A DNA stretch of 64,000 bases from Echinarachnius parma. Lineage: Eukaryota > Echinodermata > Echinoidea > Clypeasteroida > Echinarachniidae. This document shows positions 2,819-64,000 of this stretch, in pieces. The DNA is taken from assembly GCA_037951105.1 (NCBI GenBank), contig JBAMJV010009067.1, positions 1-64,000 on the forward strand, given 5' to 3'. A program made the translations under genes and the position numbers. The notes under the pieces were generated by a model. The model searched no databases, had not been told where the DNA came from, and was given only the letters and a program-made list of their open reading frames with translations. Each line of letters begins with the position of its first letter. Position 1 is the stretch's first letter.

Positions 2819-5800
2819 ATGAAGGTCCTGTTTGTGATGGCCGGTAAGAGTTTATCTTCAGAATTTTAGAGAAAAATAGTCGTATGTATTATCAAGCATT
2901 TATATTTGATATCATGATAGCAATATTGTCTGACTCAAATAAACAACTCTCAGTGGGGTTTTCTTTTAATTATATGAATATGACTTCCTTACTAGCTTAA
3001 AGGGTACCACCCACCCAAACATAATATTCTTATTAAAGAAAGGTAACATCTTTAGTATTCCATTCCATCAACAAGTTCACAAAAATATGTTTCCAGAAAA
3101 AAAAAATATAATTGGAAACGCATCACCATTATAAAGCATGCGTTCATGCGGTCTGAATTACGCAGACTGATATGTGTCGCGGTGAATTCTCGCTATAAGG
3201 GGAGGGCCAACATCGAAAAAGTGGCTTCCTTAAGGACTTAGGTTGCCAGATCTCCACAACAAGTTTAAACCAATTTTATTTGCAAGTATTTTTAGTGAGA
3301 CAAATTAATTCAGAGGTCTACCTCAAAAAATTTGTTGCGAACACCTCCAAATCCAAGATGGCGTCAAAAAAGTAGCCGTTTGACTTGCTATAGATTATTG
3401 GCAAGATTTCACAAACAACACCTGGAATAAGCATGATTTTGCAGTCATATTGAAAACAATCAAATTTCCTATAATCTGATACCAAACACAATGGGTTTCA
3501 GAATTTGTAACACGGTCATTTTTAGCCCCAAACTCAAATTTTAGGCATTTTTTCCCAAAAATATGAAATTATTGATTTACATAATTCGGCATATGTCGAT
3601 AATTGCATTAGCAGTTGAATAAATACTTTTCGAAAAACTGTCCAATTATATCAACAATACTCTCTAAAAATTTCAAGTGTATATTGTATCTGAACAAAAA
3701 GTTACAGTTCTTGGAACTCAGCATTTGATATCGACAAATACAGCAAATATGTACGATTTCGAACACTATACAGGGTGCCCCAATAAATGTAATTCTTGTT
3801 TACGGACTTTATTCAAGAATTTCTCCTAAATAATGACATATTGTTGATACCTTTTTTAGTAAAACCTTCAGTTTTCTTCTTTTATGTCATAAATATGCCG
3901 CCATCGGTTTGCAATAGTACACGAAAATAGTGTATCGGTAATTTCACTGCAATGATAAATCCATCATGAAAAGTGCATAGTCCAATATTCGAATGGGAGG
4001 CGCTCGTCATTTACAGTTATATTGACCATATCTAGATAATTATGTTTTTTAACATGATTATTATTCGGAACACCACAGTTAGCTATAATTTTCCAGGGTT
4101 CGGAAAACACTTTGAATAGGCTATTAGGTTTGACTTAGGGTAACTTGTTGTACCACCATGTACATTTGTAACCATAGTAACAACAACAATAGAAATAGAA
4201 TAAATCATATATCTGGCTACTACAAGCCGCATTATGCACACTTATTTTCGCGTGAACATGGAGGAAAACAAATCACATGTGAAATAACACCCTAAAGCTG
4301 CTATTTTTAAGTTTTTTAAAGTAAATATTGGTTGATTTGGTATTTTTTTGTCCTTAATCGGCTGTGTTACCATGGTTACACGAGTACAGTGTTGTGCAAA
4401 AAATGTAACATTCGGCTTGCTGAGGCTTTCGGTGTTGTGCATATTAGTTTAGCAAATGAGTTTGTTTTGTTTTATTTTAATACTGAGTCAGAACAAATTG
4501 TATAGACCTTTATGGTCTCCAGGTACATGTAATAAGATATGAAGGGCATGAAGGGTGCGTTCCTCGCGATCAAGATGGTGTTCGAAGCTAGATACGCTCT
4601 GCACATATTACAGTATGTCCCGAATATTGTGTACTATAGTAAGACACTTATTAAAGATAATGAGCATGATCTTGATACTGTTTTAAACACATCATGGACA
4701 CCCAGTATGATTCGAATTCGCAATACGCATGGCATGCGCGTCAGTATGCAGCTGACTGGAATGCTCCATGTGGAGTGGAATTAAGTTCATTTTTAGCGTT
4801 TGATTTATGATAAATGCAGTTAAACAAATACAGGACAGACACGACATCTACGCAGACTACATAATGATGGTGAAATATTCATCATATTACACAAAATGGT
4901 GTTTCTTTTTGTATTTTTTCATAACTGGAATTGAAGGTGTCCCGAGATTGACGAAATCATTTGGTATACAAGACCTCTTATTAAGATTACACATTTTTGA
5001 GACACCCTGTATACCATGAGAAATCATGCAAAACTACCCATTTTGTGGATAGCTAATGCTGACTTCAAAGTACTATAACTTTTTGTTCAGATACGGTATG
5101 CACTTGACATTTTCAGGGAGTATTATCGATATAATTGAACAGTTTCCTGAAAAGTATTAAATTGACTGCTAGTACAATTATCGATTTATACGTAATTATG
5201 TAAATCAATAATTTCATATTTTGGGGAAAAAATTCATACAATTTGAGTTTGGGGCTAAAAATGACCGTGATACATGAACTGAACCTCACGGTGTTTGGTA
5301 TCAGATTATAGGAAATGTTATTGTCTTTAAAATGATTGCAGAATAATGTTGATATAAGGTGTCGTTTGGGAAATCTCGCCAATTATCTATAACAATACAA
5401 AACGGCTGCCTTTTTGGACGCCATCTTGGATTTGGAGGTGTTCGCAACAAAATTTTAGAGGTAGACCTCTGAATTATGTTGTCTCATTAAAAATACTTGC
5501 AATTAGAATCGGTTTAAACTTGTTGTGGAGATATGGCAACCTAAAGTCACTTTTTTCGACATTGGCCCTCCCCTTACTACCTAGTTCCGACTGGAACGTT
5601 TTATACCGCGCGGAGCCCACTATAATGCATCCATTCCACTATCGCTACATGCCCACTAAACGCGCAATGCCCTCTGATCGCGCGACCCGGAAAAAAACTC
5701 CCATGAAGATTATTACGTACGTGCGTATATTGTCATATGCGCACGGGGGCCGGCCGAGAATGAACGCGCGGTGCGGGAGGAATCAGCATACGAACAACGC

Positions 5801-7415
5801 TAAGGCAGTTAGCTACTTACTACCCCAAATAGCGATTATCTCGAAATCCCGAAAACACGCATGGAATTGTGGGATAGCTTTTAGTCATACCAACCTCCTG
5901 ACTACTGCGTGGACGCGTCGTGTGCATGTGTGCGGCGCGCGGGAGGCGTTTATTTGTTCCGTAACCGGCCCGGGATCTGTATACATTTACTGCATACAAA
6001 CGCATTTGAGACGTGTGGTCGATATCTTTTAATTAATGCATTATATTTTGTTTGAGTTACGCTGATTGCATCCATTTCGAGCGTGTGCGAATGATGCGCA
6101 CGCGTGCCGTGCCGGAACCGGAAGTGGGAGTGACGACCCGCAAAGTGGAAAAAAAAGTCTCGTCTCGCGAATTTCGAGATTTTCGGACCTATTTAAGATA
6201 GCGAGAATGTGTGCATAGCGAACGAATCGCCCGGGAATCTGTTGTTTACAAACGTGCGCGTGAATAGCATTGGCGCACTCGCAAATTTCCGTATGGAAAT
6301 AGCAGTGGTTCCGTAAATGGTGGAAATGAATTGCTTTGATTATGAATTACACAACCCTTTGCAAAATGTTAGGTATCTATTTGATATCACACAACGGTAC
6401 CAAAACATATAATAATGTATTGTTCTTTGCCTCGTGGTCCCCTTTAATTGGCTTTTATACCAGGCCAGCGCTCATCATTATTCATCATCGTAATACGATC
6501 ATCATCATACTATCATCACATCATCATACTATGATGATAGTATGATGATGTGACGGTGACGGTGACGGATGTGATGGTAAAAATGACGATGATTAATTAT
6601 CATGATAATGATGGAGGAGAAAACCTCTTATTGTGATTAGAAAGTTTGAAAAAATGAAATGATTTACGCGTATTTTCGAGTTTTGTTATGTTCACTAGCA
6701 GTATTATGATTATAACTTTAATTAATAGTATTATTTGTCCTTTAATTATCATGATTAATTTTATTATTATTATTTTCATTATTACTATTATTATTACTTT
6801 TTGTTTTTATTTATATGACATTGTCATTATTTGTTATATTTCATGTGCTACAGATGTCCTGGTGTTGTTGCTGACGGTGTCTCAGCAGCTGCAAGGAGTG
6901 TCAGTGACACCGACATCGCAGCAACAAAATGCAACCAGGGATGCTGATGACGTAGCAATCGGAGCTTTAATCATAGGTACAGTAAACAAAATTGATGTAG
7001 GTTTTACCGGTCAAATTTGGCAAATTAGCAGTCAAATTCGTTTTTAAATCATTCAAATTCCTAATTACCTTAGAAATTACATGAATTTGCCCTTACATGA
7101 TTATATTTCCCTCTAAAATTACATGATATTTAGCCCATTCTTTACCAACTCTTTTTGCAACGGGGCCATTATCTTGCAGATTCCGATCGACATGACGACA
7201 TACCAACTGGCTCACCACCCGGCGCACCGACTCCGACGCCGCTGTTCCCATTCCACATACCGCCCTACGTGTACAAAGTCGTCCTGCCGTCCGTTGGGCT
7301 GCTGCTGTGCTGCTGCTGTTGCTGCTGTTGCTTCAAATGCAGTTGCTGTATATGTAATCACGGGCGTACCCATTCAACTGGGGGGATGATCTATTCATCC
7401 ATCCCCACCAGTTGA
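2819..7415 (+). CDS. Family copy A: small secreted-signal, single-pass, Cys-tailed membrane protein
   Basis: Three exons: 2819-2843, 6854-6976, 7180-7415. Both introns are GT..AG (gtaaga..ctacag, gtacag..ttgcag) and phase 1, giving 127 aa. Residues 1-26 form a signal peptide (MKVLFVMADVLVLLLTV core) interrupted by intron 1 after codon 8. A short ectodomain follows with one N-glycosylation sequon (NAT) and an acidic DADD patch, then a proline-rich hinge, FPFHIPPYVY, and a hydrophobic segment ending in eight consecutive Cys and FKCSCC. The last 18 residues are encoded by an 87-bp hAT-like insertion; the older stop (TGA 7454-7456) is displaced. The start is the only ATG in the conserved exon 1. 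Intron 1 is 4 kb because it holds a 2.4-kb foldback element. Predicted type I membrane protein, with palmitoylation of the Cys run likely by analogy. Function unknown. The exon model rests on agreement with copies B and C. Confidence 0.8.
3196..5576. mobile_element. 2.4-kb foldback DNA element in intron 1 of copy A
   Basis: Terminal inverted repeats of about 550 bp (3196-3780 and 5030-5576) begin TAAGGGGAGGGCC and end with its complement. The arms share a TTGGATTTGGAGGTGTTCGC-like segment in opposite orientation. The centre (3780-5030) has only weak open frames. The element is absent from the paralogous intron of copy C, so it arrived after the A/C duplication or was lost from C. Confidence 0.75.
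5590..6330. other. CpG-richer intronic segment
   Basis: This stretch of copy A intron 1 is clearly richer in CG dinucleotides than its surroundings (several GCGCG words) and is absent from copy C. A 170-codon open frame on the plus strand shows no recognisable domain and is probably a by-product of base composition. It could be a CpG island or an inserted fragment. Confidence 0.35.
6420..6600. repeat. Intronic hairpin conserved between copies A and C
   Basis: Around 6508-6553 the 17-base arm TCACATCATCATACTAT is followed by GATG and its exact complement, forming a stem-loop. The same hairpin occurs in copy C intron 1 (about 51956-51993). There the GACGGT/GATGAT repeat that follows has expanded to more than 200 bp. 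Confidence 0.7.
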
Positions 7416-7445
7416 ATAGGTATTACGTAAGTCGCTACGCCCGTG
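7359..7445. mobile_element. 87-bp hAT-like MITE at the stop codon of copy A
   Basis: Perfect 10-bp terminal inverted repeats (CACGGGCGTA / TACGCCCGTG), flanked by the 8-bp duplication TATGTAAT (7351-7358 and 7446-7453). The interior is a further imperfect palindrome. Copy C has the uninterrupted site followed directly by TGA. An 8-bp duplication and a CA-starting end are the hAT signature. The insertion adds 18 codons to the reading frame before a new TGA at 7413-7415. Confidence 0.9.
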
Positions 7446-8285: not shown

Positions 8286-8293
8286 GTGTGTGC

Positions 8294-8339
<46 letters not shown>

Positions 8340-17259: not shown

Positions 17260-17452
17260 AAATACAACACAACGCATTTATGCAAATAAACGGGGCAACC
17301 CACCATTAGCATAATTGAAATCCAAGTGCTACGCAAAGCATTTATCGGGGAAAACACACATTTACATTGAAATACAACCTTGTATTTTCCAGATATCAAC
17401 TAAGAAATGCAATTTGAAGTTTTCTTCTAACATCAACCGCTGATCTGATAAC
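17260..17452 (+). promoter_or_regulatory. 5' flank / probable promoter of gene copy B
   Basis: Carries the family landmarks: GCAAATAAACGGGGCAACCC, CTTGTATTTTCCAGATATCA, and AAGAAATGCAATTTGAAG ending about 30 bp before the ATG. The TTTTCCAG may be a 3' splice site of an upstream non-coding exon. Confidence 0.5.
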
Positions 17453-20400
17453 ATGAAGGACCTCTTTGTGATAGCAGGTAAGCGTTTTTCATCAGAATTT
17501 TAGACAAAGTAGTCGTATGTATTTTCAAGCCTTCATATGGATAATAATTATCTATCTATCTATCTATCTGTCCGTGTGAATTATGGGCACATGTGTGCCC
17601 AGGGAACAACGTTGCAGTGTAGTATAATGAAGTCGTATACTGAATATTATTGTTACCCCGATTTCATGTATTTATTTAGTAGAGCACTTTTACCATGGTG
17701 AATTGCACTACTAATACTATTGTTATTATATCTTCAAGGCATGCAAGGCATGATCATGCCTACAAGTACATTTGTTTGAATGTTTATAGAAATTGTTATA
17801 ATTGCAATGAAGTTCATTATTGTCATGATTGTTATTGCCTTCTTTTCCATTTGCCAGTGAATGACACATTTCTTTATAACATGTATGGTCATGTGTCATG
17901 AACTCGCCTCCAAATAGGGTGGCGCCGTTACATTTTGGGGTTTTTTGGTACCATCTTCTTAATTTTTTTCAAAACCTGAAAACCTTTCTTAACAAATTTG
18001 GTATCATTTTAAAGAGCTGTCAGAGTGCTATCTATCTGCAAAGTTGAGATACAGCTATGTGAAGGTTGGAGCAAGAGGGTGGCGCAGGAAGCGGCGCCCG
18101 TGTACAAAGTCTATGGGAAGATGTCTCTCAAAGTGCAACTTTTCCTAAAACGTTAATAACTTTGTCAAAACTAGATGCATAGCAACAATGTTGGTTTTAA
18201 ATGAAAGCTTAAACGTTGAATTATAATGTAAAATGATTGAAAAGTGTGTTTGCTTTATCAAATTTTAACTAAATTACCACAAACATAGAAAATTGGTGGT
18301 TGCCTGTACAAACTCTATATAGGGGCACAATCTTGACCGATACATTTTGTGAATTCTTTGTAAAAACGTTAATATCTTCCAAAAGAAAAGGTGTAAGACT
18401 GCAAATTTGGTACCAAATTAAAGGTTACTTATCAAATCGTATTATGTCCCAACATATTGAGGGCTTAACTTTATATTCCATTCCACTAGTGACTCCTACA
18501 TAGTGAAAATGATTAATTATTTCAACAGAAAAAAATCATGAAGTATGAATGAAAATATCTCCCGCAAAATAATAATTTACCCCATACAATATTATATTGC
18601 TGTAAAGGTCTAAGTCTGCCCTGCATGAAAATATTATCATAAGTTGTCTAGACCTACTTCAGAAAAAGTTATCAGGAAAATATTGACCTTCAAAACTGCA
18701 AACAAAATTTCAAGTTTTGGTTAATAAACAAACTTAACTGTACACCAAATGTGATTTTTGAGGGCATATTTGGGTTCCTTGGGAAATTTCCTTTCAGTAA
18801 ATGTATAGTTGTGATAGGATAGGGGGACTTCCTCAGAAAATATTAGCTATCCGATTGTAACAGTGTCCCGCAGAAGCCCAATCGGCATATAACGCAAAAG
18901 GAGGTGACCTCACGACGCATGACCGTATATGTTTGAAGACCTATACAAATATATATTATCTTATCTTATCTTCAAGCAACCATGGAACAAGTGGACTTTA
19001 AAACAGTCATTCGACCCAGAACATCCCAACCCCACGACACGAAGATTACATAACATGCCTAATCGAAAAGTCTGAGAAATTCATGAAGGCTATTAACTTT
19101 GTTGAGTGATTTTCTTCTTGAATTAATTACTTCATAATTCATATCCTAACATGATATGAAGAGTGGTCACATGTGTGCTCACAAAACAACGTTGTAGTGT
19201 AGAGCAATGAAGTCGTACTGAATATTGTTGTATATATATATATACATACATAATAATGCAAAGAATAATCATAAATGATTGAGAAGGAAGAATAATAGGC
19301 ATAGCTTAATAAGCATTATTCCTCCCTTTAATCCTTCCCCATGAATTAATTGAGTACAAAGGGCCGATAGATTGGCTTGCCAATGACCTGAATTTGGATC
19401 TGTCTTCAATCACACGGTCCCCGTGGCCTAGTGGTTAAGGCGTCAGCGTTCCAAGCTGGAAACCCGGGTTCGAGTCCTGGCGGAGACCAATTTTTCGACC
19501 AGTGCCTTTTTTCATTTGGAGGATTAAAGGGAGGAACAATGCTTATTAAGCTACGCCTATTATTCTTCCTTCTCAATCATATATGATTATTCTTTGCATT
19601 ATTTAAATATTGGAAGAAACCAAAGCTGTATGTATTAGTTCGCCTTTCGTTGATATATATGTTCTAACTAATACTTGAATCACTCCTTTGTGATCCAGCT
19701 GAAGTACAGGCGGCTTGCATTGTTCGTAACTCCTTCCCCATGAATTAATTGAGTACAAAGGGCAGAGAGATTGGCTTGCCAATGACCTGAATTTGGATCT
19801 GTCTTCAATCACACGGTCCCCGTGGCCTAGTGGTTAAGGCGTCAGTGTTCCAAGCTGGAGACCCGGGTTCGAGTCCTGGCGGAGACCAATTTTTCGACCA
19901 GTGCCTTTTTTCATTTGGAGTATTAAAGGGAGGAACAATGCTTATTAAGCTACGCCTATTATTCTTCGTTCTCAATCATTTATGATTATTCTTTGCATTA
20001 TTTAAATATTGGAAGAAACCAAAGCTGTATGTATTAGTTCGACTTTCGTTTATATATACATATATAGGTACACAAATATATCTAACCTATGTCTCTCCAC
20101 TGGAGAAGGAAGGCCTATAGCTGCAGATCTTCATCACCATTCTATTTTCTTCTTTCGTGTGCTTGTCGCATCAATGTAACACACCCAAATCCTCTGAACA
20201 TCTGATGTCATCCATTCAACGCCTACTCTGTCTGCCTCTTCGTCTGGTCTGAGTTGTTGGTGTCAAATTAGTTATATGCGTCCATCTGTTGTCCGTACGT
20301 CTTGCAAGGGTGGCCTTCCCATCTCCATTTCTTTGTTTTTTATTTCCGGTATGATATTCCTGGTATATGTTTTATTTCTTAAGTCCTCATTTCTGACCTT

Positions 20401-23070
20401 GTCTCTTCCTGGAACTCCTACCATTGCTCTTTCTGTGACCCTACATATCTTGTCAAATTTCTTAGTTGTTGCCCAAGTCCATTCCCCGTAAGATAGTACC
20501 AGAATTATACACTGATTAAAGATTTGTCTTTTGAGGGAGATTGGAAGATTCTCATCTCTGAACATGATGCTGAGTTTCCCAAATGTTGCCCTCTTGCCTT
20601 CCCTTCTTCTTCACACTTCTCCTATCGTTTTCATTTTTTTTTATTTTCAAGGGTGATGATGCTTTCACCGAGTTATATTTAGTCTTGTCAGAAGGCGCTA
20701 GCGTATGGCCATAATAACCTCACCCTCACCCCATTATTAATATTATTGTTGTTGTTATTATTTGTTTAATTACATATTACTGATTGTATATTTTTGTTAT
20801 TATGTATAACATTACATTTGCTACAGATGTCCTGATGTTGTTGCTGACAGTGTCGCAGCAGTTGCAAGGAGCGTCTGTGCCACCGACATTGCAGCAACAA
20901 GCTATTATGGGTATGTATTATTAGTTATCACTATTACGTAACATTAAATGGATAGTACAGTTTTGGTTTAGCGGGAGCTTCAGGAAATAATGTTTTCGTG
21001 AGGTACTGAAAAAAACAAGTGTAAAATCACAATGTTAAAGACAGAAAAAACTTTGTTTGATTTAAGTACCGCTTAAATATCCATACATATATCCATTTAG
21101 AATTACTGTTGGGCCCACATTTATTTAATAATTAAATATAAACATTTATAAACATTTATAATTTAACCAAACATCACATTTACATTGTTTAATTTAAGAA
21201 TTGGAGCAAATTACAAATGTGCCGTTAATGTGTTTTTGGTTTTCTACATTTTAAGCCCAGCTGCATGAATTATAATCAATATTATGATCAATATATTATT
21301 GATAACTTAGAGTTTGACTAAAATAAAATTTGACCAGAACTGTACTATCCCGATAATACTAAATTATAATTTGAAATCGAAATGAAACCTATGCAACTGG
21401 GATTTTAGCTGTACTACTGCTACTACTCCTAAAAATTATAGTACTTATTTCAATTAGTACAATTATGTCGTTTTCATGCTGGCAGACTTTTCATCGGATG
21501 CGTCCGGACGCATCCGATGAAACGGCCAGCATGAATGGTACAGAGGAGAAAAAGCCGATAGAATAGGCGATGAAAAGAAGAGAAATAGGCGATTAAATTC
21601 TCCTACTTTAGAGTAGGAGAAATTCTCTTTCTAACGGTGTCACTCCGATGAAACGGGCAGCATGAAATGGTTCGGGTGAAAAATACCGATGAAAACGGTC
21701 AAAGGTCGTTATCTTGTTCCGGCTAAAGCAGTGTAACGCGCGCTTTTTCGGAACACCGGCATGCGATAATATTATGCTGCGCCAGCATAGCTCGTGTAAG
21801 GTGAACCTCGAGTATCGTGCCCGTGTTTTTTGTTGACGTTTTGTTTACGTATAAATTTATTCGTTTTACTTGTATATTGTATGAATATAAAGGTTAAACA
21901 AAATAAAAATTCATGTACATCGTTATAATAATATATTTATTATAAAGCAATATATTTATAAAACCAAATGATGAACAGAACAATATTTAAAACGGATCAC
22001 TCTTTCCTTGGAATTTGCGCAGTCACGTTGCTACAATTGTTTGCAGCTGTAGTTTATACTAGTCGCCAAATCCACTATATCTGCCAGCTCGTGCAGCAAA
22101 CGATTGCGCAACAATTCTTCACTGCCGGCCGGTGAATGCAAAAGGCGATTAAATTCCCCTGCACTATGAACGCGACAGAGGGGAAGTGGCAATTTCACCG
22201 TTGTTTACATAAGAAATTCCATCGGTATTTTTCATCGGTAAGGGCAGCATGAAAATGTACCATCAATTATGATAACAACTACAGAGGGCGCTCTCTCCCT
22301 ACTCCAGTGATTAAAAAAAAGCATAGGGGGAAAGCTGTGCCGAAAAAATACAAAAATAAAAAAAGGGTGTGCCCCCAACCTCCCACCCCCTTGTACGAAT
22401 TTAGCATGGTAGTACCACGGTAAAACCATGGCACGGTACAAAACCATGGTCACACAGTTCTGTACCATACCGTGATTTTACTATGGGACGGGTACCATGG
22501 CATGACCGTGGATACTATACCGCGGTAATACCATGGGTGCCATGGTACTACCATGGAATCCATGGTATTACCATGGTACTACCATGAAAACCATGGTTTT
22601 ACCATGGTACTTTTTTTGTAATGGCCACCCCTTAATCAGTCTGACCACGCTACGCCACTCAGGACAACTTAACAAATGTTCTCATGGTTATATTATATAT
22701 TTATCATTTTGCAGATTCCACTCTTCGTGACGCCATAACAACAAACGGTGCAACAACCAGCGCACAAACCGGCACGACAACCAGCGCACAAGCCGGCACG
22801 ACAACCGGCACACCAACCGGCACGACAACCGGCACACCAACCGGCACACCACCCGGCGAACCAACCGGCACTACAACCGTCAAACCAACCGGCACACCAA
22901 CCGGCGCACCGACTCCGGCGCCGCTGCTCCCGTTCACCATACCACGCTACGTGTACATCATCATCCTCCCATGTGTTGCTGTGGTGGTGCTGCTTATCTG
23001 CTGCTGCTGCTGTTTGTGCAAGTGTAGACTCAGGGCTTGTTGCGGATGCGATTGTAAATCCAGATATTGA
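17453..23070 (+). CDS. Family copy B: signal-bearing membrane protein with mucin-like stalk
   Basis: Three exons: 17453-17477, 20827-20910, 22715-23070. Introns are GT..AG, phase 1, 3.3 and 1.8 kb; the product is 154 aa. The signal peptide (MKDLFVIADVLMLLLTV core) is followed by QQLQGASVPPT. Exon 2 is 39 nt shorter than in A and C and lacks the NATRDADD stretch and its glycosylation sequon. Exon 3 instead carries about 45 residues of TGTT/TGTP/TGEP repeats from a 12-bp coding minisatellite (22740-22915), a good substrate for mucin-type O-glycosylation. LPFTIPRYVY, a transmembrane segment (IIILPCVAVVVLLI), CCCCCLCKC and a basic Cys-rich tail ending CDCKSRY complete it. Longest and most divergent of the three copies. 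Role unknown; a surface-exposed glycoprotein is an inference. Confidence 0.8.
17896..18950. other. Copy B intron 1, unassigned part
   Basis: AT-rich DNA with no motif I can name, apart from short TATC and TTATC repeats near 17550 and 18955. Confidence 0.4.
19252..19602. mobile_element. Inverted-repeat element enclosing a tRNA-Gly-like gene, unit 1
   Basis: Arms of about 80 bp (19252-19334 and 19520-19602) pair across AATAATCATAAATGATTGAG, AATAATAGGC and AATAAGCATTATTCCTCCC. Between them lies a complete tRNA-like gene. The unit recurs 399 bp downstream without its left arm. Confidence 0.75.
19417..19488 (+). tRNA. tRNA-Gly(UCC)-like gene 1
   Basis: 72 nt that fold as a standard cloverleaf: acceptor GTCCCCG/CGGAGAC (one C-A mismatch), D stem GCCT/AGGC, anticodon stem TCAGC/GCTGG with loop GTTCCAA (anticodon TCC), 4-nt variable loop, T arm CCGGG-TTCGAGT-CCTGG. 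A and B box promoters are intact and a TTTTT terminator follows at about 19492. CCA is not encoded, as usual in eukaryotes. Its setting inside an inverted repeat within an intron suggests a tRNA captured by, or ancestral to, a mobile element; activity is uncertain. Confidence 0.7.
19729..20003. mobile_element. tRNA-bearing element, unit 2 (left arm missing)
   Basis: Repeats 19331-19602 with few changes, including the right arm (19918-20000) and the downstream AAACCAAAGCTGTATGTATT. The left arm is replaced by unrelated sequence, consistent with unequal exchange within the palindrome. Confidence 0.75.
19816..19887 (+). tRNA. tRNA-Gly(UCC)-like gene 2
   Basis: Identical to the first over all loops and stems except TCAGT for TCAGC in the anticodon stem (a G-U-compatible change) and one substitution in the variable loop. 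Anticodon TCC, T5 terminator directly downstream. Confidence 0.68.
20085..20640 (-). pseudogene. LINE (RTE-like) reverse transcriptase C-terminal fragment
   Basis: A 97-codon minus-strand frame (20272-20565) contains LPISLKRQIFNQCI, LSYGEWTWATTKK and VTERAMVGVPGRDKVRN, then GRPPLQDVR. This matches the thumb/C-terminal end of non-LTR reverse transcriptases (LK..I.NQCI.P.L.YG.ETW, TERAM.G...RDK.RN). The YG-x-E-TW motif is degraded, the frame breaks on both sides, and polymerase motifs are absent, so it is a 5'-truncated dead copy. Confidence 0.8.
20950..21352. mobile_element. MITE family M1 copy in copy B intron 2
   Basis: Ends GATAGTACAGTTTTGGTTTA and AGAACTGTACTATCC, short interior. Confidence 0.7.
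21470..22260. mobile_element. Probable element with TTTTCATGCTGGC ends
   Basis: Begins with TTTTCATGCTGGC and ends with GGGCAGCATGAAAAT. Near the left end a perfect stem-loop pairs TTTCATCGGATGCGTCC with its complement, and ATCGCCTATT/AAAGGCGATTAAATTC words repeat inside. It lies in intron 2 of copy B. Family unknown. Confidence 0.5.
22400..22615. repeat. CCATGG palindrome array in copy B intron 2
   Basis: Ten CCATGG hexamers in about 190 bp, mostly within TACCATGGTA-type words, plus related ACCACGGTA and ACCGCGGTA variants. No fixed period. Confidence 0.85.
22740..22915 (+). repeat. 12-bp coding minisatellite in exon 3 of copy B
   Basis: About 14 units of CCAACCGGCACA-like sequence in frame, encoding TGTP/TGTT repeats. 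Unit number is expected to vary between alleles. Confidence 0.9.
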
Positions 23071-39089: not shown

Positions 39090-40508
39090 TCACCCATATT
39101 TCCACCTGTCATGATTCTCATGCTCCCAGTAACCTGACAAAAAAGACCGACATCTGAAATGCTTCACGCAACGCAAGACCAACTCGAAAAGCATTAAGTG
39201 CACGAATGAAATCAGTCGGCCGATATCCCCTCCAGCGTCCTGAACCTCCAAAACCTTCAAACATGCGAGTGCAGACAACACAAAGACGAGGTTGAATAAC
39301 TGACAGAGAGCAAGTCCCTTAACTACTTGACACATTTTTATCCACATAAGTTTTATTCGCATTTTCACTGATACGTCATACTTAATGTCTATCGGAATGT
39401 TTAGCTTTGAGTAGTTTGTATGAAAACGGTTAGAAATAGGCAACACGATATTGGAAGAATGGAAAAGCAGTGCTCGCAGAAGGTGAACTGGCCAGCTGCA
39501 TGAAAGAACCTCGGTCGTCATAAGCCCGCCATAAGGTCTTAACAGTGGCATTTCTATCAGTATCACCAACATGAAAAACAGAGTGTCATAACTGAACCTT
39601 TGTCTTCTCTCGAATGTAGGTAACTCATCAAAGATCCGTGAACATGTCGTATCGACATCAGGGACCTCTTGTGTCAGGGCGCTGCTAGCACGACTAAGCA
39701 ACAGCTTTTCTGACGTTGACATGGGTATTTGACCACCATCTCGCTGGCGCGATTTTACATGCGATAGGATATCTTTTTGCGTGCTGTTGCAAAGATCCTC
39801 CGTGGTTTCCAGCTGTGTTTCCATCTTGTGGAAGATGTCGCTTGTGTGCAATTGTAACTGCTCCTGAGAACGCATAAACATTCGTCGTCTCTTGTCGATT
39901 ATCTCGATCTCACTAAGCGCGGTTTTAGCAACCTTCTTGCGCTTCTCGTGCCTCTTCATGAACAGTTCCACCATCCCATCAGCAAACTCCTGGTCAATAC
40001 CATCTGTCTCGCTCTCAAGTCGACGAGTTATTGACTCCTTTTCCTCGTTTACTGTGTCCATCATGTCAGCTGCAACTTTTGGGAACCATGCCTTTGCCTG
40101 GTTTTTGTAATTACGCAGTTGCTCTTTCAGTTTCGCCACTTCTTCTCTCTTCAGGCCAATCGGTCTCAACTTCTCCGTAAGCTCCTGACAAAGGTAGGCC
40201 ACCATGTCTTCCCACTCGATGATCTCATGTGACTTGTGTGCTTTGCCATGGCCACACTCCAAGCACGCCCCTAGATGACACGTTTTGCAATAGCACACCA
40301 CCTCAACGTCCGGATGCATGTGACACATCCACGACTCCTCGTTATGCGCAGACGCGTCGATTACGTCTGGATCTTGCGCACACGCCCTGCAGAGAGTCAG
40401 GCGAACTTGTCCGCGGTATGACAACATGTCGCTGCTTTCTCCGGTTGTATGGCACCTTTCGCATTTTATAGCATCTGTTGGCTCGTTCTGGGGGAATGCG
40501 GATGCCAT
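39090..40508 (-). CDS. TRIM-like B-box protein with multi-pass membrane C terminus
   Basis: 472 aa in one exon. The start is the first in-frame ATG, in good context (A at -3, G at +4). Residues 16-43 form a C2C2 zinc knuckle (C16, C19, C40, C43) where a B-box 1 would lie. Residues 62-94 are a B-box 2 with all ligands (C62, H65, C74, C77, C82, C85, H91, H94). A charged helical, probably coiled-coil region spans about 105-255. There is no RING finger, so E3 ligase activity is not supported. Instead of a SPRY, NHL or filamin domain, the C terminus has four hydrophobic stretches near 308-324, 339-358, 396-420 and 429-448. B-box plus coiled coil suggests an oligomeric membrane-anchored adaptor, possibly in innate immunity as for other expanded marine-invertebrate TRIM relatives. 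That role is inference. Intronless structure fits retroduplication. Confidence 0.88.
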   Translation of the reverse strand: MASAFPQNEPTDAIKCERCHTTGESSDMLSYRGQVRLTLCRACAQDPDVIDASAHNEESWMCHMHPDVEVVCYCKTCHLGACLECGHGKAHKSHEIIEWEDMVAYLCQELTEKLRPIGLKREEVAKLKEQLRNYKNQAKAWFPKVAADMMDTVNEEKESITRRLESETDGIDQEFADGMVELFMKRHEKRKKVAKTALSEIEIIDKRRRMFMRSQEQLQLHTSDIFHKMETQLETTEDLCNSTQKDILSHVKSRQRDGGQIPMSTSEKLLLSRASSALTQEVPDVDTTCSRIFDELPTFERRQRFSYDTLFFMLVILIEMPLLRPYGGLMTTEVLSCSWPVHLLRALLFHSSNIVLPISNRFHTNYSKLNIPIDIKYDVSVKMRIKLMWIKMCQVVKGLALCQLFNLVFVLSALACLKVLEVQDAGGDIGRLISFVHLMLFELVLRCVKHFRCRSFLSGYWEHENHDRWKYG

Positions 40509-51079: not shown

Positions 51080-51700
51080 CCCTTCATTGGCATTATTCAT
51101 CTCACTGACTACATGGTAAAACAAAAATGCATGAAACATAGCCTAGAAATACAATGTTGCTATAGATACGTACAGACGCATCTTGTTTGTCGTCAATACA
51201 TTCAGCTTCCTGCATGAATGGACAAAGGACAAAGGAAAGTATGATGAATAATGAAGTGTTCAGATTTTCAAAAACATCATTTTATTAATACGGCGACCTA
51301 ATTTTCTCATACATTTTGATGGAATGGAACAGATGAAAACATATTCACATACTGAAATCACTTTCACATATGAAACAATCAATTTAGCTGATTCATTTGA
51401 TTTAATTTATGCAAAGAAACCCGGGTAAAACCCACCACTATAATTGATCACTGATACAGCATTCCAGTTGTTAATAACAACACCATACACAATGCGCATC
51501 AATCGTATCATCATGATCATGTATAGAATTTATAATTAACGGACCACGTACTTCATACAGCTATTATTGATTTGTTTAGTGCGCCAGTTCATCGTCTGCA
51601 TTTTACGCACAAATACAGCCTTGTACGTTATATTTTCCAGATTTCAACGAAGAAATACAATTCCAAGCCTTATTTTAACAACAACCGCAGATCTGGGAAC
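51080..51700 (+). promoter_or_regulatory. 5' flank / probable promoter of gene copy C
   Basis: Aligns along its length with 2320-2818. Proximal blocks GGGTAAAACCCACCACT, GGACCACGTACTTCATACAG, TATATTTTCCAGATTTCAAC and AAGAAATACAATTCCAAGCC precede the ATG by less than 300 bp. Confidence 0.5.
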
Positions 51701-53232
51701 ATGAAGGGCCTGTTTGTGATGGCGGGTAAGAGTTTATCGTCAGAATTTTAGAGAAAAATAGTCGTATAAATTAGCAAGCCTTTATATTAATTTTGATATC
51801 ATGATAGCAATATTGTCTGACTCAAATAAAAAACTCTCAGAGGGGTGTTCTTTTAAGTATATGAATATGACTTCCTTACTAGCTTAATTGGCTTTTATAC
51901 CAGGACAGCGCTCATCATTATTCATCATCGTAATACGATCATCATCATACTATCATCACATCATCATACTATGATGATAGTATGATGATGTGACGGTGAC
52001 GGTGACGGATGTGATGGTGATAATGATGACGTGACGGTGACGGTGACGGATGTGACGGTGATAATTATGATGTGACGGAGATGGTGACGGTGATAATGAT
52101 GTGACGGTGACGGTGACGGATGTGATGGTGATAATGATGATGTGACGGTGATGGTGACGGATGTTACCGTGATAATGATTATGTGACGGTGACGGATGTG
52201 ACGGTGATAATGATGATGTGACGGTGACGGATAATGACGATGATAATGATGATGATTAGTTATCAGGATGATGATGTAGGAGAAAACCTCTTATTGTGAT
52301 TAGAAAGTTTGAACAAATGAAATGATTTACGCGTATTTTCGAGTTTTGTTATGTCCACTAGCAGTATTATGACTATAAATTTAGTTAAAAGTAGTATTTG
52401 TAATATTCACTAGCAGTTTATTTATTTATTTATTTATTTGTTTTATTTATTTTATACTGCAGGGTAGGCCTGTTCACTTATGCAAAACTGCTTTACGAAG
52501 GCGCCCTGCAGTTTAACTTGCATATTGGCATACAACAAAATATAAACATATATACAATACATTATAACAATTCAAAACGAACTTTAATTAGTACCATTTT
52601 TTCTTTAATTATAATAATTAATTTTAGTATCATTATTATCATTATTAATATTAATATAAAATTTTGTTTTAATTTATATGACATTGTCATTATTTGTTAT
52701 ATTACATGTGCTACAGATGTTCTGGTGTTATTGCTGATGGTGTCGCAGCAGCTGCAAGGAGCGTCTGTGACACCGACATGGCAGCCAAAAAATGCAACCA
52801 GGGATGCTGATGACGTAGCAATTGGAGCTTTAATCATAGGTACAGTAAACAAAATTGATATAGGTTTTCCCGGTCAAGTTTGGCAGTCAAAATCGTTTTT
52901 AAATAATTCAAATTCCTAATTTTACCTTAGAAATTACATGAATTTGCCCTTACATGATTTATTTTCCTCTAAAATTGCATGATGTCTAGCCCATTCTTTA
53001 CCAACTCTTTCTGCAACGGGGCCATTATCTTGCAGATTCCGATCGACATGACGACATACCAACTGGCTCACCACCCTGCGCACCGACTCCGACGCCGCTG
53101 CTCCCATTCCACATACCGCCCTACGTGTACAAAGTCGTCTTGCCGTCCGTTGGCGCGGGGGTGCTGCTGCTGTGCTGTTGCTGTTGCTGTTGCGTCTGTT
53201 GCTTCAAATGCGGTTGCTGTATATCTAATTGA
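51701..53232 (+). CDS. Family copy C: small single-pass Cys-tailed membrane protein (most compact)
   Basis: Three exons: 51701-51725, 52717-52839, 53036-53232. Introns of 991 and 196 bp, GT..AG, phase 1; 114 aa. The signal peptide (MKGLFVMADVLVLLLMV core) is split by intron 1. The ectodomain has one NAT sequon and DADDVAIGALII as in A, then SDRHDDIPTGSPPCAPTPTP, with an extra Cys where A has Gly, then LLPFHIPPYVY. The transmembrane segment KVVLPSVGAGVLLL runs into seven Cys, then VCCFKCGCCISN and stop. It retains the original C terminus that copy A lost to a transposon. Exons 2 and 3 are close enough to A to prove a recent duplication, while the frame is intact in both, which argues for selection. 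Function unknown. Confidence 0.82.
51956..52262. repeat. GACGGT/GATGAT minisatellite in copy C intron 1
   Basis: Starts at the conserved hairpin. Higher-order units of GACGGTGACGGATGTGA plus GGTGATAATGATGAT repeat about seven times. Copy A has only the first unit. Confidence 0.9.
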
Positions 53233-54372: not shown

Positions 54373-54374
54373 TA

Positions 54375-58620: not shown

Positions 58621-58639
58621 TATACAGCTTGTCCCAAAA

Positions 58640-59400: not shown

Positions 59401-60640
59401 CTCATTTCAGGTGGGGGGATGGCCTGTATTATCACCCCCCCCCCCCCAATATTTGGGGTTGAAAAATATATAATAACATTAAAATTAAGGAGCATTGCCC
59501 CCTCATGAATGGAAGTTGTTACTATAGTCTTCTTTAAACCACTTTTTGATAATGCTAAACTGCCCAAATCCAAAATCTTCCGGAGCTGCGCCCCTTGAAC
59601 CCCCATTAAGGTTATTTGACCCAGTACCAGCCATGTACTCATTAAATAGTCTTATTCAGGACTTCTCTCTTGGCAAACTTTCAGGCGATCCTGGCCCACT
59701 GTGCGTTTGCGCTTTGCTCACAAAAATTGAGGTAACTATTCAATACTTAATTGTATTTTTGGATATTACAAATCTCAAAGCTTCCGGGGGCTTCGCCCCC
59801 TGGACCCCCAATAAGCTTTCCAATGTGGGTATTCCTTGACTTATTCTATTCAGGGTTCCATCAGGATGATTGCAATCAACCGTATTTATCTATCAGGGTA
59901 AAATTCATCCATACTTGGACAGACAACATCTTTATATTTGGATATGACAAATTTCAAGCTCGCTCCGCTCGCTCGCATACGTATTTTAACAACCTCGGGT
60001 GTTTATATATTACCTTTAATAACGACAATAAAACGAGTATACCCATACAATATTGAACCAAATGGCAATTTTCCGCTGTGAAATCGCTAAAATTTCCAAG
60101 CTCGCTCCGCTCGCTCGCATATATTTCACAACCTCGGGTGTTTATATATTACCCTTCATAACGCCATATCATAAGTAATAAAAACGAATATACCCATACA
60201 ATTATAATGAAACAAATGGCAATTTTCCGCTGTGAAGTTGCTAAAATTTTCGAGCTCGCTCCGCTCGCTCGCATATATAATATTTCACAACCTCGGGTGT
60301 TTATCCTTTCATAACGCCATACAATTATATTGAAACAAATGGCAATTTTCCGCTGTTAAATTGCTAAAATTTTCAAGCTCGCTCCGCTCGCTCGCATATA
60401 TTTTAGAACCTCGGGTGTTTATACATTATATTGCCCTTCATAATATATCATACGTAATAAAGAATTTTATCAAGAAACTGCAAAATGATTGCCCATTGTA
60501 TTACCTTACAGCTAAAATGTAATATTTAAAGTTCGAAATCCTTAGACATGGGTCCAATTTTTTCACAAAAAGTCCTTAGACATGGGTATCCCTATTTACA
60601 ACAAAAGGACCCTTGGATGTGGGTATGGGTTCGGAGGTCT
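59400..60640. repeat. Element remnant with ~110-bp CTCGCTCCGCTCGCTCGCAT units
   Basis: Four units (59950-60430) containing GCTCGCTCCGCTCGCTCGCA and AACCTCGGGTGTTTATA. They are the inverse of the units inside the 26.5-kb hAT-like element, so this is probably a damaged relative. Confidence 0.7.
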
Positions 60641-60659
60641 CAGCCACACACCCGCGTCC

Positions 60660-61150
60660 GACTATAATCTGAGTAACCCCCCCCCCCCCCCGGGCCGGGC
60701 GCGATCGCGCGCGTGTGCGTAAATTATGTTGGGCTTGTGCTTGTGCTTGTGCTAGTATATGTAATGGCTATCGCCGATCATCCCCCCCGCCCCCCCCCCC
60801 CCCCCCCCACTCCTCGGTACGGATTTACGCCCCTGCCCCCAATGGCGAGAAGAAATCGACGCCCTTGGCCTTTTTCCATACAAAATTGTGCATTTAATGT
60901 TTGTTAAAATAATGATTCAATAGAGATATCATCAACGACTATTAAGAAACCTATTTTTTTTCTTTCTAAAAAGTCTAAATAATATCGCTCGGTGATTGCC
61001 GGTGAAGAACATTGTGAATAAAAATATATTTATGCATATTTCAGCCGTTTCTGAACCGATTTTTATCAAATAAAGTTTATTCTGTCATTAAAATTGTATG
61101 TTCTTTCGAATTTGACAGTCAGTTTTTCATTATCTCACAAAAAAATATCG
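60660..61150. other. C-runs and M1 MITE fragment
   Basis: C-runs near 60680 and 60795; 60886-61147 is an internal/right part of an M1 MITE (GCCGTTTCTGAACCGATTTT). Confidence 0.6.
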
Positions 61151-61199
61151 AGGGGCACTTCGGGAAATACCAATACTCAACACTACCTTTAAAAAGGTG

Positions 61200-61500
61200 T
61201 GAGTGACACCACCCCCCCCCCCCCCAGGAGGTGGCTGCCCCCTCCCCCTTCATTGGCATTGACTCCCACTGACTGCATGGTAAAACCAAAAAAACATGCA
61301 TGTAACGGTCTGCAGACATAGACTAGAAATTAAATGTTGCCGTATACATACGGCAACATTTAATTTCTAGTCTGTACACGTGTAATTAAACATACATGTA
61401 CATGTACATGTATGTTTACACGTGTACATACCATTATAATTATGACTCCAACACTGCCTCGGGGAAAACCCACCACTGCACATACAGCATTCCAGTTGTT
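61200..61500. repeat. Relict upstream segment with palindromes
   Basis: CCCCCTCCCCCTTCATTGGC, GGTCTGCAGACATAGACTAG and GGGGAAAACCCACCACTGCA match the copy C upstream region. Two snap-back palindromes lie within it (61321-61372 and 61376-61428). Confidence 0.65.
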
Positions 61501-61574
61501 AGTTAGGGGCCATCTACAAAGTACGTACGCAAATCCCTTCCCCCCCTGTACGCACTTTTTATACACGTGGTTCC

Positions 61575-61940
61575 AGTGGCGTAGCGAGGGTCAAGTGATT
61601 AGGGGGCACAGCTGCGAGGGAGCGGAGCGACCAAGCCCGAGGGCGCGTAGCGCCCGAGGGGGGGGGGGGGGGGGGGGAGGGTGTGGGAGGGGGGTGTCCC
61701 CCCTCCCACGGTAGGGAGCTTTTGCAAATTTGTACTTGAAATAATGCAATTTGGTGCATACCTTGGAAGGAAATTTGATAATACTGAATTAAAGAAATCA
61801 TTTCCCTCATGATAAAGTATACACACACAATCAAACCTACGTGTACACACACACCAGACTCAAATACTCTCACGCCGTATGCTTGTCTACATTTATTTGC
61901 GGGAGGGTGTGGGAGGGGGTTCACCCCCTCCCAATTTTTT
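61575..61940. mobile_element. hAT-like element remnant
   Basis: Begins CAGTGGCGTAGCGAGGGTC and contains GAGGGAGCGGAGCGACC and a GTGTGGGAGGGGG motif, inverse of words in the 47-kb tandem array. Confidence 0.55.
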
Positions 61941-61991
61941 TTAAATTTTTGAAATTGGTGTTTAAAATATCACTGTAGAAGTATGGTCATT

Positions 61992-62329
61992 CCCAGCTAG
62001 CCACCTGACGTTGGGCCGATGTCGGAATTTGGTTGCCGGATGTCGGCATATCGCCGTTGGCTCGAGGTTAAAATGTCCGCCAGCCCAACATCGTCACGAC
62101 GTCATTTTTGTGATATATTGGCATAACGTCATTTTCCGACAATGGCCCAACATCATCTCATGACATGATGTTGGGCCATTGTCGGAAAATGACCTTATGC
62201 CAATATATCACAAAAATGACGTCGTGACGATGTTGGGCTGGTGGACATTTTAACCACGAGCCAACGGCGATATGCCGACATCCGGCAACCAAATTCCGAC
62301 ATCGGCCCAACGTCAGGTGGCTAGCTGGG
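61992..62329. mobile_element. 338-bp palindromic element, copy 2
   Basis: Same length and arms as 11673-12010. The centre CTCATGACAT is the complement of copy 1's, so it is inserted in the opposite orientation. Confidence 0.9.
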
Positions 62330-62499
62330 TTATTGTCTTTATCATTGTCTTAATCATGGGTGTTAAATGGTATATAATAGTGAATCTACTCGTTACGTAT
62401 TTTAAAATGGTAATAGCGAGGAAAGATTAAGCCCGTGAGATGGATCCACGTGATCCTGTATACTATAGAGCCATCGATATAGTCTAGGGCATTGAGCTC

Positions 62500-63558
62500 C
62501 AATGGAACTAAGCAAAAGTGGAGGGGAGACATTGCGAGGAAGCGAAGCGACCGATTGGGGGAGGGTGTGGGAGGGGGTGTCCCCCTCCCACAGTAGGGAG
62601 CTTTCGTATTTTGGGGCCTGAAATTGTGCGATTTGGTGCACACCTGAGACAGAAATTTCACGTAATATAAAGTATATATATTAAGTATGGAACCAAACAT
62701 ACTTAATGACAAAGGAGGAGGACAATCTCCTCCCCTTTCTAATGTGGGGGACATAATATTCCAATTTTATTTGCATTCAGCGCATATGGACCGAATTTAC
62801 TAAAAGATATATTATCTCAAATTATTTTATTTTCCGATGATAGTGTGCTATTAGACATGATAGATGAGGGTCTAATAAATTTGGTATTATATCAGTATTT
62901 CAGAATATGCGCGCGAAGCGCGCGGCAAAAATTAAGATTTACAGTCCTTTTCAAACTAAAAAAAAACCCAGCTATGCTCGGGTCCCTTGAATTAGTTTCA
63001 GTAGGCCTATGCTCAACTGATGCAGATATCGACTCTGGAGAAGATGACTGGTGCTCCTTCAATCATGATCATCAACAATATGCCTAGATTATGCATCATG
63101 AATTAATGGAACGGGTGCATTTGGGGTGAAGAAATTAGTAAAAGAAGTTTGTCTTTACCTAGACATTTAGGACTACGTAGTGCAGCTATGCGCCTTTATA
63201 GCCTGCATGAAGGCGTCAAAGTTATCTATAAAAGCGGGAGGCAGATTCAAGATCCTAAAAGGGCCCTTGGTATGATAAACGATTTACCATGCTAGGAAGT
63301 TTGTTAGGCCTATACGCGCTCTATGTCTTCTGAAATGCGGTGAGCGTCGATCCTCGCGCACGGGACTGAAAATTTGCATAAGGCGCTATATTGGAAGGAT
63401 TCTTCAAACTGATATAGGTGCGCTATTGCTAGTACTAGGGAACGACTGTTATGTTATTGGTTATTATCGTTGATAATGATTATTATCACACATTAAATAA
63501 AACGTGATAATAATGAATGATATACATTGTAAACACATTTGGCTTCATGTCGGGTCGT

Positions 63559-63593
<35 letters not shown>

Positions 63594-63664
63594 CAAACGA
63601 TTGGGGGGGGGGGGGGGGCACGTGCCCCCCCGTGCCCCCCCCCCCCCCCGTAGCTACGCCACTG
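62500..63664. mobile_element. hAT-like element, inverted copy
   Basis: From 63664 leftward it mirrors 45625-46460, including the GTAGCTACGCCACTG end, CACGTG hairpin, T/A-run and GACCCGACATTAGCC-type interior. GAGGAAGCGAAGCGACCG near 62536 links it to the 47-kb array. Confidence 0.7.
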
Positions 63665-63789
63665 CGTGGTTCAATGGAGCATACGCATCAGATTTAACTC
63701 TCCCCTCCCCTCCCCCTCCCCTCCCCCTTGTGCATACTTTGTAGATGTCCCCTTACGCCATACATTTCCAATGCGCATCTAACCTACTA

Positions 63790-64000
63790 TATCCAGGCGC
63801 CGTGCGAAGGCCGTACTTCGTATGGCGCTGATCACAGTTAATGCGCATCATGTATTGTATAGATTTCTAATTAACGGACCACGTAATTCATCCAGCTATA
63901 ACCAATTGAATTGTTCAATTCAGTATAGTACGCTAGTTCATCGGCTGCCTTTTGGGAAGCATTGTATTTTTCAGATATCAACTAAGAAGTATAATTTGAA
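63790..64000 (+). promoter_or_regulatory. 5' flank of a fourth gene copy (D), cut by the window end
   Basis: GGACCACGTAATTCATCCAG, CTATAACCAATTGAATTG, CTGCCTTTTGGGAAGC, TATTTTTCAGATATCAACTA and AAGAAGTATAATTTGAA follow the same order and spacing as before copies A-C. By alignment the ATG should lie about 45-60 bp beyond base 64000. Confidence 0.65.

What the first reader, a model, noticed from the sequence alone, without database searches (positions are those of the whole stretch)
2819..64000. Tandem family of three-exon, signal-bearing, poly-Cys membrane proteins
Three intact genes and the flank of a fourth lie on the same strand with identical architecture: 25-nt first exon, phase-1 introns, signal peptide split by intron 1, Thr/Pro ectodomain, PF-x-IP-x-YVY, transmembrane segment grading into a Cys run, Cys-rich tail. 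All frames are open although the surrounding DNA is saturated with transposon damage, which suggests selection. I do not recognise the family. A locally expanding, variable-stalk surface protein family could belong to immune recognition, allorecognition, mucus or gamete biology; none of these is shown by the sequence.
Basis: partly seen in the sequence, partly recalled or inferred. Interest (0 to 1): 0.88.

Follow-up and report, generated by a model that had tools for sequence, protein, structure and literature searches.

The report
Sea-urchin poly-cysteine surface-protein gene cluster
A sea urchin carries a small, still-duplicating cluster of genes for short, probably cell-surface proteins with a repeat-built stalk and a run of cysteines at the membrane; no relative was found in the protein databases searched, and what they do is unknown.

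Summary
Three intact three-exon genes lie at 2819-7415, 17453-23070 and 51701-53232 (+), each with a 25-nt first exon and two phase-1 introns. The host is an echinoid (COX1). The family reaches beyond the window: 13 three-exon copies on six contigs, three subfamilies, 10 of 13 intact and 3 of 13 broken. "All frames open" holds only inside the window. The "fourth gene" is a first exon without a body of its own.

Coding parts are 68-85% identical between subfamilies. Sampled introns and 3' flanks are mostly at the level of unrelated sequence, except short stretches beside exons 1 and 2. Tree-wide dN/dS is 0.58 (p=0.005): about 0.45 on deeper branches and about 1.5 on recent ones (p=0.013). That is old constraint, then relaxed or diversifying copies.

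No Pfam match reaches a cut-off. No homologue at E<=1 in a 5.8-billion-protein set with nr and UniRef. Best reading: a lineage-restricted birth-and-death family of short type-I, mucin-like, probably S-acylated membrane proteins. Expression was not testable; any immune or surface-coat role is inference.

The parts
2736..2905 (+). g1 conserved first-exon block (about 84 bp 5' flank/UTR, exon 1, first 60 bp of intron 1)
   Evidence: 84% to g2 over this block and 88% to g3 over 159 bp of it
2819..2843 (+). g1 exon 1 (25 nt, ATG, phase-1 donor GTAAG)
6854..6976 (+). g1 exon 2 (123 nt; rest of signal peptide, start of ectodomain)
7180..7415 (+). g1 exon 3 (stalk, PFHIPPYVY, membrane segment, Cys run, stop)
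7359..7445 (+). 87-bp inserted repeat with the 8-bp direct repeat TATGTAAT on both sides; supplies the last 18 residues and stop of g1
   Evidence: ends; 1764 first-look candidates in the genome, 40 scored, 57 matches
17370..17538 (+). g2 conserved first-exon block
17453..17477 (+). g2 exon 1
20827..20910 (+). g2 exon 2 (84 nt)
22715..23070 (+). g2 exon 3 (long T/P/G stalk from 12-nt units, PFTIPRYVY, membrane segment, Cys-rich tail, stop)
   Evidence: tandem array 22753-22910
51625..51787 (+). g3 conserved first-exon block
51701..51725 (+). g3 exon 1
52717..52839 (+). g3 exon 2 (123 nt)
53036..53232 (+). g3 exon 3 (stalk, PFHIPPYVY, membrane segment, Cys run, stop)
51982..52254 (+). GAT/GTGACG-rich tandem array inside g3 intron 1; the sequence at its start (51884-52029) is 97% identical to 6444-6589 in g1 intron 1
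63962..64000 (+). start of the conserved block of an orphan first exon (ATG at contig position 64036, outside the window)

Best explanation
A sea-urchin (probably lineage-restricted), tandemly duplicating family of short (114-154 aa) type-I membrane proteins. Exon 1 and the start of exon 2 encode a cleaved signal peptide. The mature N-terminus is a short extracellular stalk; in types B and C it is built from Thr/Pro/Gly units whose copy number varies, and it should be O-glycosylated. A conserved membrane-proximal motif, PF-x-IP-x-YVY, leads into one transmembrane helix. The run of 4-8 consecutive cysteines at its inner end and the Cys-rich tail lie on the cytosolic face and are S-acylated, fixing the protein in ordered membrane patches. 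The most likely job is a dense, quickly varied glycoprotein coat or adhesion/decoy layer on an epithelial or immune (coelomocyte) surface. The cluster turns over by tandem and segmental duplication, first-exon gain, transposon insertion and loss. Shown: gene anatomy, homology, number of copies, broken copies, selection estimates. Inferred: splicing in vivo, topology, glycosylation, acylation, tissue and role.
For: Same three-exon order, phases and junction residue in 10 intact copies on five contigs (exon 1 is 25 nt in 9 of 10 and 28 in c64, exon 2 is 78-123 nt). Conservation is concentrated in coding exons while most intron and 3'-flank samples look unrelated (two A-B pairs). Tree-wide omega 0.58, p=0.005 on 96 core codons, and 0.65, p=0.014 on all codons. 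Under a simple neutral substitution model all nine reading frames stay open in 46 of 4000 and 33 of 4000 runs with two roots. Two hydropathy peaks, N-terminal and C-terminal, in the 4 proteins profiled. Basic residues follow the C-terminal hydrophobic segment in types B and C, as expected for N-out topology (positive-inside rule, established). Stalk length differs between intact copies: 72, 72, 56, 60 (type B), 39 (type C), 23 (type A). No homologue at E<=1 in a database that includes nr and UniRef, although the same tool returned echinoderm COX1.
Against: No transcript or peptide evidence could be consulted. Only some pairwise dN/dS tests reject neutrality (11 of 45 possible pairs tested: 3 at p<0.05 towards constraint, 1 towards excess replacement, 7 not significant). 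Tip branches show omega 1.46, compatible with relaxed constraint, i.e. loss of function in young copies. 3 of 13 three-exon copies are broken. Against introns, dN of recent copies is not clearly lower (see full report). Type A proteins have little Thr and a Lys inside the proposed membrane segment.
Confidence: 0.55

Rival explanations
1. Decaying family: the ancestral gene was functional, but most copies now in the cluster are unexpressed duplicates carried by segmental duplication and by unmerged haplotypes, drifting at the neutral rate.
For: Tip omega about 1.46. In recent type A pairs dN is about equal to intron divergence (g3-d39b dN 0.028, introns 0.038 and 0.015; g1-g5 dN 0.037, introns 0.032 and 0.025), and in g2-g8 it is no lower (0.009 against 0.006 and 0.005). 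3 of 13 copies broken and two first exons without a body. C7144 matches 10.2 kb of the contig at 99.2%, so it may be a second haplotype.
Against: 10 of 13 intact. Deeper branches omega about 0.45. No point-mutation stop was seen: the 10 intact copies, exon 3 of the 3 broken copies, and exon 2 of d13a and d24a are open; exon 2 of g7 is cut by its insert. In g8-d24b dN (0.037) is below both introns (0.076, 0.130).
Confidence: 0.25
2. A membrane-anchored immune family that works like SpTransformer: tandem cluster, repeats inside the coding exon and short tandem repeats around the genes drive rapid diversification of a pathogen-facing stalk.
For: Host is a sea urchin. Clustered genes, 12-nt coding repeats, segmental duplications of the cluster, GAT-type tandem array in intron 1. 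Elevated replacement rate on recent branches, p=0.013 against one omega.
Against: Not SpTransformer by structure (three exons, membrane segment, Cys run). Copy number is small (13 three-exon copies, some perhaps allelic). Tip omega above 1 was not itself tested against 1, and the tip/deep split was chosen after seeing the pairwise table. No expression or binding data.
Confidence: 0.2
3. The cysteine-rich end is extracytoplasmic: the proteins are secreted or luminal, and the Cys run forms disulfide-linked polymers (mucus, adhesive or cuticle) rather than an acylated anchor.
For: Very high Cys content, 11-13 Cys after YVY in the 10 intact copies; no recognised motif in the tail; low Thr content of type A fits a structural protein.
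Against: Hydropathy peak 2.5-3.2 over 19 residues at the Cys end in the 4 proteins profiled. K/R residues lie after it in types B and C, and conserved aromatics (YVY) before it, as in a membrane helix. Nearly no Cys in the ectodomain (0 in 8 of 10 intact copies, 1 in g3 and d71).
Confidence: 0.1

Closest known systems
SpTransformer (Sp185/333) family of sea urchins
   Same: Sea urchin; small genes in a cluster; first exon encoding a hydrophobic leader; repeats inside the main coding exon; segmental duplications and short tandem repeats around the genes (PMC5491942 passages; PMC10887614 abstract).
   Different: SpTrf genes have two exons and encode Gly-rich, RGD and His-rich regions (passages). 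Here there are three exons, a Thr/Pro stalk, a membrane segment and a Cys run; no RGD in the 10 intact proteins and 0-4 His each.
Small membrane mucin-like glycoproteins (general kind; recalled)
   Same: Signal peptide, Thr/Pro repeat stalk of variable length, one membrane segment, short tail.
   Different: Very small; conserved PF-x-IP-x-YVY; the membrane segment runs into a poly-Cys tract. No shared Pfam domain found.
Cysteine-string protein (DNAJC5) Cys string (recalled)
   Same: A dense run of cysteines that in CSP is palmitoylated.
   Different: CSP has a J domain and no signal peptide or membrane span; resemblance is compositional only.
Shisa / WBP1 / VOPP1-type adaptors and CYSTM proteins (recalled)
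   Same: Small single-pass proteins with clustered Cys near the membrane.
   Different: Shisa-type proteins carry a six-Cys ectodomain (recalled) and here the ectodomain has 0-1 Cys; no Pfam match to either.

Membership tests
SpTransformer (Sp185/333) | two exons, the second encoding the whole mature protein | tested here: not met
   three exons in all 10 intact copies (gene models, no transcripts); two-exon rule from PMC5491942 passages
SpTransformer (Sp185/333) | Gly-rich region, RGD motif, His-rich region | tested here: not met
   no RGD and 0-4 His in each of the 10 intact proteins; feature list
SpTransformer (Sp185/333) | clustered genes, coding repeats, flanking short tandem repeats, segmental duplication | tested here: met
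   a tandem array was seen in intron 1 of g3 rather than shown around every gene; shared organisation, not membership
SpTransformer (Sp185/333) | up-regulated in phagocytes on immune challenge (listing of PMC5940198) | not testable with these tools
   no expression data on hand
Mucin-like type-I membrane protein (kind, not a homology family) | signal peptide + T/P repeat stalk + single C-terminal membrane segment | tested here: met
   hydropathy and composition of 4 proteins; clear in types B and C, weak stalk in type A; no dedicated signal-peptide predictor was available
Mucin-like type-I membrane protein (kind, not a homology family) | O-glycosylation of the stalk | not testable with these tools
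   needs protein work
Shisa/WBP1/VOPP1-type adaptors (features recalled) | conserved six-Cys ectodomain | tested here: not met
   0 Cys before the membrane segment in 8 of 10 intact proteins, 1 in the other two
Any Pfam family, CYSTM included | profile match above the curated cut-off | tested here: not met
   only sub-threshold hits, best E 0.17, for types A, B and C
Cysteine-string protein | J domain | tested here: not met
   no Pfam J domain listed for g1, g2, g3 or c64
Sea-urchin P16 skeletogenic membrane proteins (recalled) | sequence similarity to P16 | not tested
   no P16 sequence was fetched; one paper search with p16rel1 found nothing

The most novel reading that the evidence does not exclude
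A second, membrane-anchored diversifying surface family in sea urchins, organised like SpTransformer but unrelated to it. Variable stalks come from 12-nt coding repeats, first exons are duplicated on their own to give new promoters, and new cytosolic tails are taken from an inserted high-copy repeat, all on an acylated poly-Cys anchor.
Probability: 0.15. Interest if true: 0.75.

Novelty: new variant of a known kind. Interest (0 to 1): 0.45.

Why it matters
If expressed, this is an orphan surface-protein family caught in early expansion. Three subfamilies, a divergent single-copy relative on another contig, broken and intact copies, and a repeat-donated C-terminus are all readable in one genome. 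It would let one test how small membrane proteins arise and diversify in echinoderms, and whether SpTransformer-like genomic instability is used by other sea-urchin families. The PF-x-IP-x-YVY plus poly-Cys membrane module has no match in Pfam at cut-off or in the protein set searched.

Tried and rejected
Rejected: (a) chance open frames: coding-confined conservation across three subfamilies and identical splice phases argue against it. (b) The open frames reading through the end of intron 1 (ORFs 6688-7047 and 52518-52919) as the real start of exon 2: the frame is not shared (46-81 aa in type B copies against 96-171 in uncut type A copies), while the TACAG acceptor is present in 14 of 14 exon-2 copies. 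(c) A known domain: Pfam and PDB sequences for the type C protein (one hit at E 0.13, aligned over one residue) gave nothing usable. (d) More distant family members: searches with a type A exon 3, a type C exon 3 and exon 2 close on the same set. The three best extra hits (E 0.0066-0.020; C4206, C5543, C1906) were fetched and translated: poly-Cys read from simple trinucleotide repeats or short Cys stretches in broken frames, not members. The extra hits (E 0.03 or worse, 31-38% identity over 32 residues) were not pursued.

Led nowhere: literature searches, seen as listings only. One search listed 11 of 11, none judged relevant; searches found 0; one search listed 3 of 3; one search listed 10 of 21; one search listed 10 of 86, from which two SpTransformer papers were opened (passages of PMC5491942; abstract and outline of PMC10887614). 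No sign of this family in these listings, but only openly licensed PMC papers are held. Species: COX1 places the genome in Echinoidea only; the species was not identified.

Rows dropped: d71 (coding sequence identical to g3) was left out of the tree fits. The three broken copies, d13b (contig ends before exon 3) and the two orphan first exons were left out of all selection tests. The repeat-derived last 18 residues of g1 and g5 were trimmed before alignment. In one search the stalk row printed for d24a is meaningless because its frame is broken. In one search IQ-TREE did not print omega; only the likelihoods are used. In one search a leading D was set before two cut pieces, so its invariant D1 is an artefact; that alignment was not used further.
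Full report
WHAT IS THERE. The window is bases 1-64000 of contig C9051 (114,864 bases) of a 1.2-Gb genome. The genome's COX1, read with the echinoderm mitochondrial code (tables 5, 13 and 14 also leave it open), is 95% identical to a protein cluster headed by Echinocrepis rostrata and to Cidaridae entries, against at most 92% for the named starfish and sea-cucumber entries. Both best matches are Echinoidea. The host is therefore an echinoid; the species was not identified.

GENES. Three genes lie on the + strand. g1 has exons 2819-2843, 6854-6976 and 7180-7415; g2 17453-17477, 20827-20910 and 22715-23070; g3 51701-51725, 52717-52839 and 53036-53232, stops included. Each has a 25-nt first exon and two phase-1 introns with GT-AG ends; the codon made at both junctions is GAT (Asp). 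The spliced products are 127, 154 and 114 residues. All start with an N-terminal hydrophobic stretch interrupted by the first junction Asp, followed by QLQG-A/V-S-V as a plausible cleavage region (by eye). Then come a T/P-containing stretch, PF-x-IP-x-YVY, a C-terminal hydrophobic segment that grades into cysteines, and a short Cys-rich tail.

THE FAMILY GENOME-WIDE. A 148-nt first-exon probe gave 17 matches, an exon-2 DNA probe 14, an exon-2 protein 15 pieces, and type A and type C exon-3 proteins closed on the same 13 exon-3 places. Put together there are 13 three-exon copies on six contigs: C9051 6 (g1, g2, g3, g5, g7, g8), C3985 2 (d39a, d39b), C2483 2 (d24a, d24b), C13030 1 (d13a), C7144 1 (d71), C6494 1 (c64). 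There is also one copy cut by a contig end (d13b, C13030), and two first exons without a body (ATG at C9051:64036; GTG at C9051:71985). Ten of the 13 are intact: g1, g2, g3, g5, g8, d24b, d39a, d39b, d71, c64. Three are broken: g7 has a 435-bp insert with inverted-repeat ends in exon 2; d24a has a 125-bp inverted-repeat insert at the end of exon 1; d13a has a frame-shifting deletion in exon 1. Exon 3 of all three, and exon 2 of d13a and d24a, are open in their own frames. Some copies may be alleles: C7144 matches 10.2 kb of the window's contig at 99.2%, and C2483 matches 6.2 kb at 99.2%. The number of separate loci is therefore uncertain and may be below 13. The searches score only their best candidates, so counts are lower bounds.

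SUBFAMILIES. Type A (g1, g3, g5, g7, d39b, d71) has a short stalk (23 residues from the exon-3 start to PF) and seven or eight consecutive cysteines in its intact members. Type B (g2, g8, d13a, d24a, d24b, d39a) has a long stalk built from 12-nt units (72, 72, 56 and 60 residues in g2, g8, d24b and d39a) and five consecutive cysteines. Type C (C6494, one copy) has a 39-residue stalk, four consecutive cysteines and its own tail. The stalk thus does vary by unit copy number. g1, g5 and g7 share an 87-bp insert just before the old stop codon, flanked in g1 by the 8-bp repeat TATGTAAT. It gives these copies a new 18-residue tail and stop, and it belongs to a repeat with 1764 first-look candidates in the genome; 40 were scored and 57 matches listed.

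IS IT MORE THAN CHANCE. Between one copy each of types A, B and C the first 75 bases of exon 2 are 76-85% identical, the common part of exon 3 77-82% and exon 1 68-84%. Most intron samples and the 3' flanks lie at 33-55%, the level of unrelated sequence under forced global alignment. Exceptions are about 84 bp before the ATG (59-74%), the first 60 bases of intron 1 between A and B (83%; 44-53% with C), and the last 35 bases of intron 1 (74-77%). Local alignment of two A-B pairs (g1-g2, g3-g8) finds no intron-2 or 3'-flank match. A neutral substitution simulation on the fitted tree kept all nine frames open in 46 of 4000 runs, and in 33 of 4000 with another root. It ignores indels, and the nine were chosen as intact; against that, no point-mutation stop was seen in the exons of the broken copies that could be read.

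SELECTION. A codon model written for this (MG94-type, nine sequences, fixed topology) gives one omega of 0.58, p=0.005 against 1 on 96 core codons, and 0.65, p=0.014 on all codons. IQ-TREE likelihoods agree in direction (MGK, core: -1003.19 free, -1008.66 with one parameter fixed at 1). Two omegas fit better: about 0.45 on deeper branches (between subfamilies and between the two type A pairs) and 1.46 on recent ones (p=0.013 core; 0.50 and 1.44, p=0.009 all). The split was chosen after seeing the pairwise table, and the tip value was not tested against 1. Pairwise tests are weak: of 11 pairs tested out of 45, g5-c64 (p=0.004), g3-c64 (0.040) and g1-g3 (0.040) show constraint, g3-d39b (0.036) shows excess replacement (7 replacements, no silent change), and the other seven are not significant.

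INTRON YARDSTICK. Against intron divergence the young copies give a mixed answer. Type A: g3-d39b dN 0.028 against introns 0.038 and 0.015; g1-g5 0.037 against 0.032 and 0.025; g1-g3 0.042 against 0.112 and 0.053. Type B: g8-d24b 0.037 against 0.076 and 0.130; g8-d39a 0.030 against 0.094 and 0.017; g2-g8 0.009 against 0.006 and 0.005. Divergence is patchy along the same pair (g8-d39a introns 0.094 and 0.017), which suggests recombination or conversion. Reading: an old constrained protein, with recent copies relaxed or diversifying.

RELATIVES. Pfam gave no match at a curated cut-off for any type; the best sub-threshold E was 0.17. Two searches of a 5.8-billion-protein set found nothing at E<=1: type B, 5503 word-sharing candidates, none; type A, 17 candidates, none. 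That set includes nr and UniRef records of echinoderms, since COX1 found them. The search needs shared five-residue words, and low-complexity sequence weakens it, so distant relatives are not excluded; type C was not searched there. Restriction to echinoids is therefore an inference from missing hits.

HOW IT MOST LIKELY WORKS. Shown: gene anatomy, conserved splice phases, two hydrophobic segments, Cys run, variable stalk, family turnover. Inferred from established rules: type-I topology (signal peptide; basic residues after the second segment in types B and C), O-glycosylation of Thr/Pro repeats, S-acylation of cysteines at the cytosolic membrane face. Speculative: a surface coat, adhesion or decoy layer in epithelium or coelomocytes. 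The SpTransformer cluster of sea urchins is the nearest organisational parallel: clustered small genes, leader exon, coding repeats, flanking short tandem repeats (PMC5491942 passages; PMC10887614 abstract). The present family is not a member of it: three exons instead of two, no Gly-rich/RGD/His-rich plan, and a membrane anchor.

VERDICT. A real gene family, undescribed in what could be searched, of a familiar general kind. Its claim of selection needs the qualification above, and its functional suggestions remain open.

Noticed in passing
window 19416-19489 and 19815-19888 (+), inside g2 intron 1: Two tRNA-Gly (anticodon TCC) genes, one in each copy of a 399-bp-spaced, 97%-identical tandem duplication.
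   Followed up: partly
window 39090-40508 (-): A 472-aa open frame with a sub-threshold B-box zinc finger (Pfam E 0.013) followed by what looks by eye like coiled coil and several hydrophobic segments; an 88%-identical copy of this stretch lies at C9051:101740-103808.
   Followed up: no
window 7359-7445; also C9051:66531-66617 and 79364-79450: A high-copy 87-bp inverted-repeat element inserted before the stop codon of three type A copies donates a shared new C-terminal tail.
   Followed up: yes
C9051:64036 and C9051:71985: First exons duplicated on their own upstream of further family genes; the first keeps ATG and a donor site and could act as an alternative promoter and first exon.
   Followed up: partly
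window 2736-2905, 17370-17538, 51625-51787: About 84 bp before the ATG is conserved in all three types, and the first 60 bp of intron 1 (83%) between types A and B, beyond coding needs; possible promoter or splicing element.
   Followed up: partly
window 51982-52254 and 6444-6589: GAT/GTGACG tandem array in intron 1 of g3 and similar sequence in g1, reminiscent of the short tandem repeats around SpTransformer genes.
   Followed up: no
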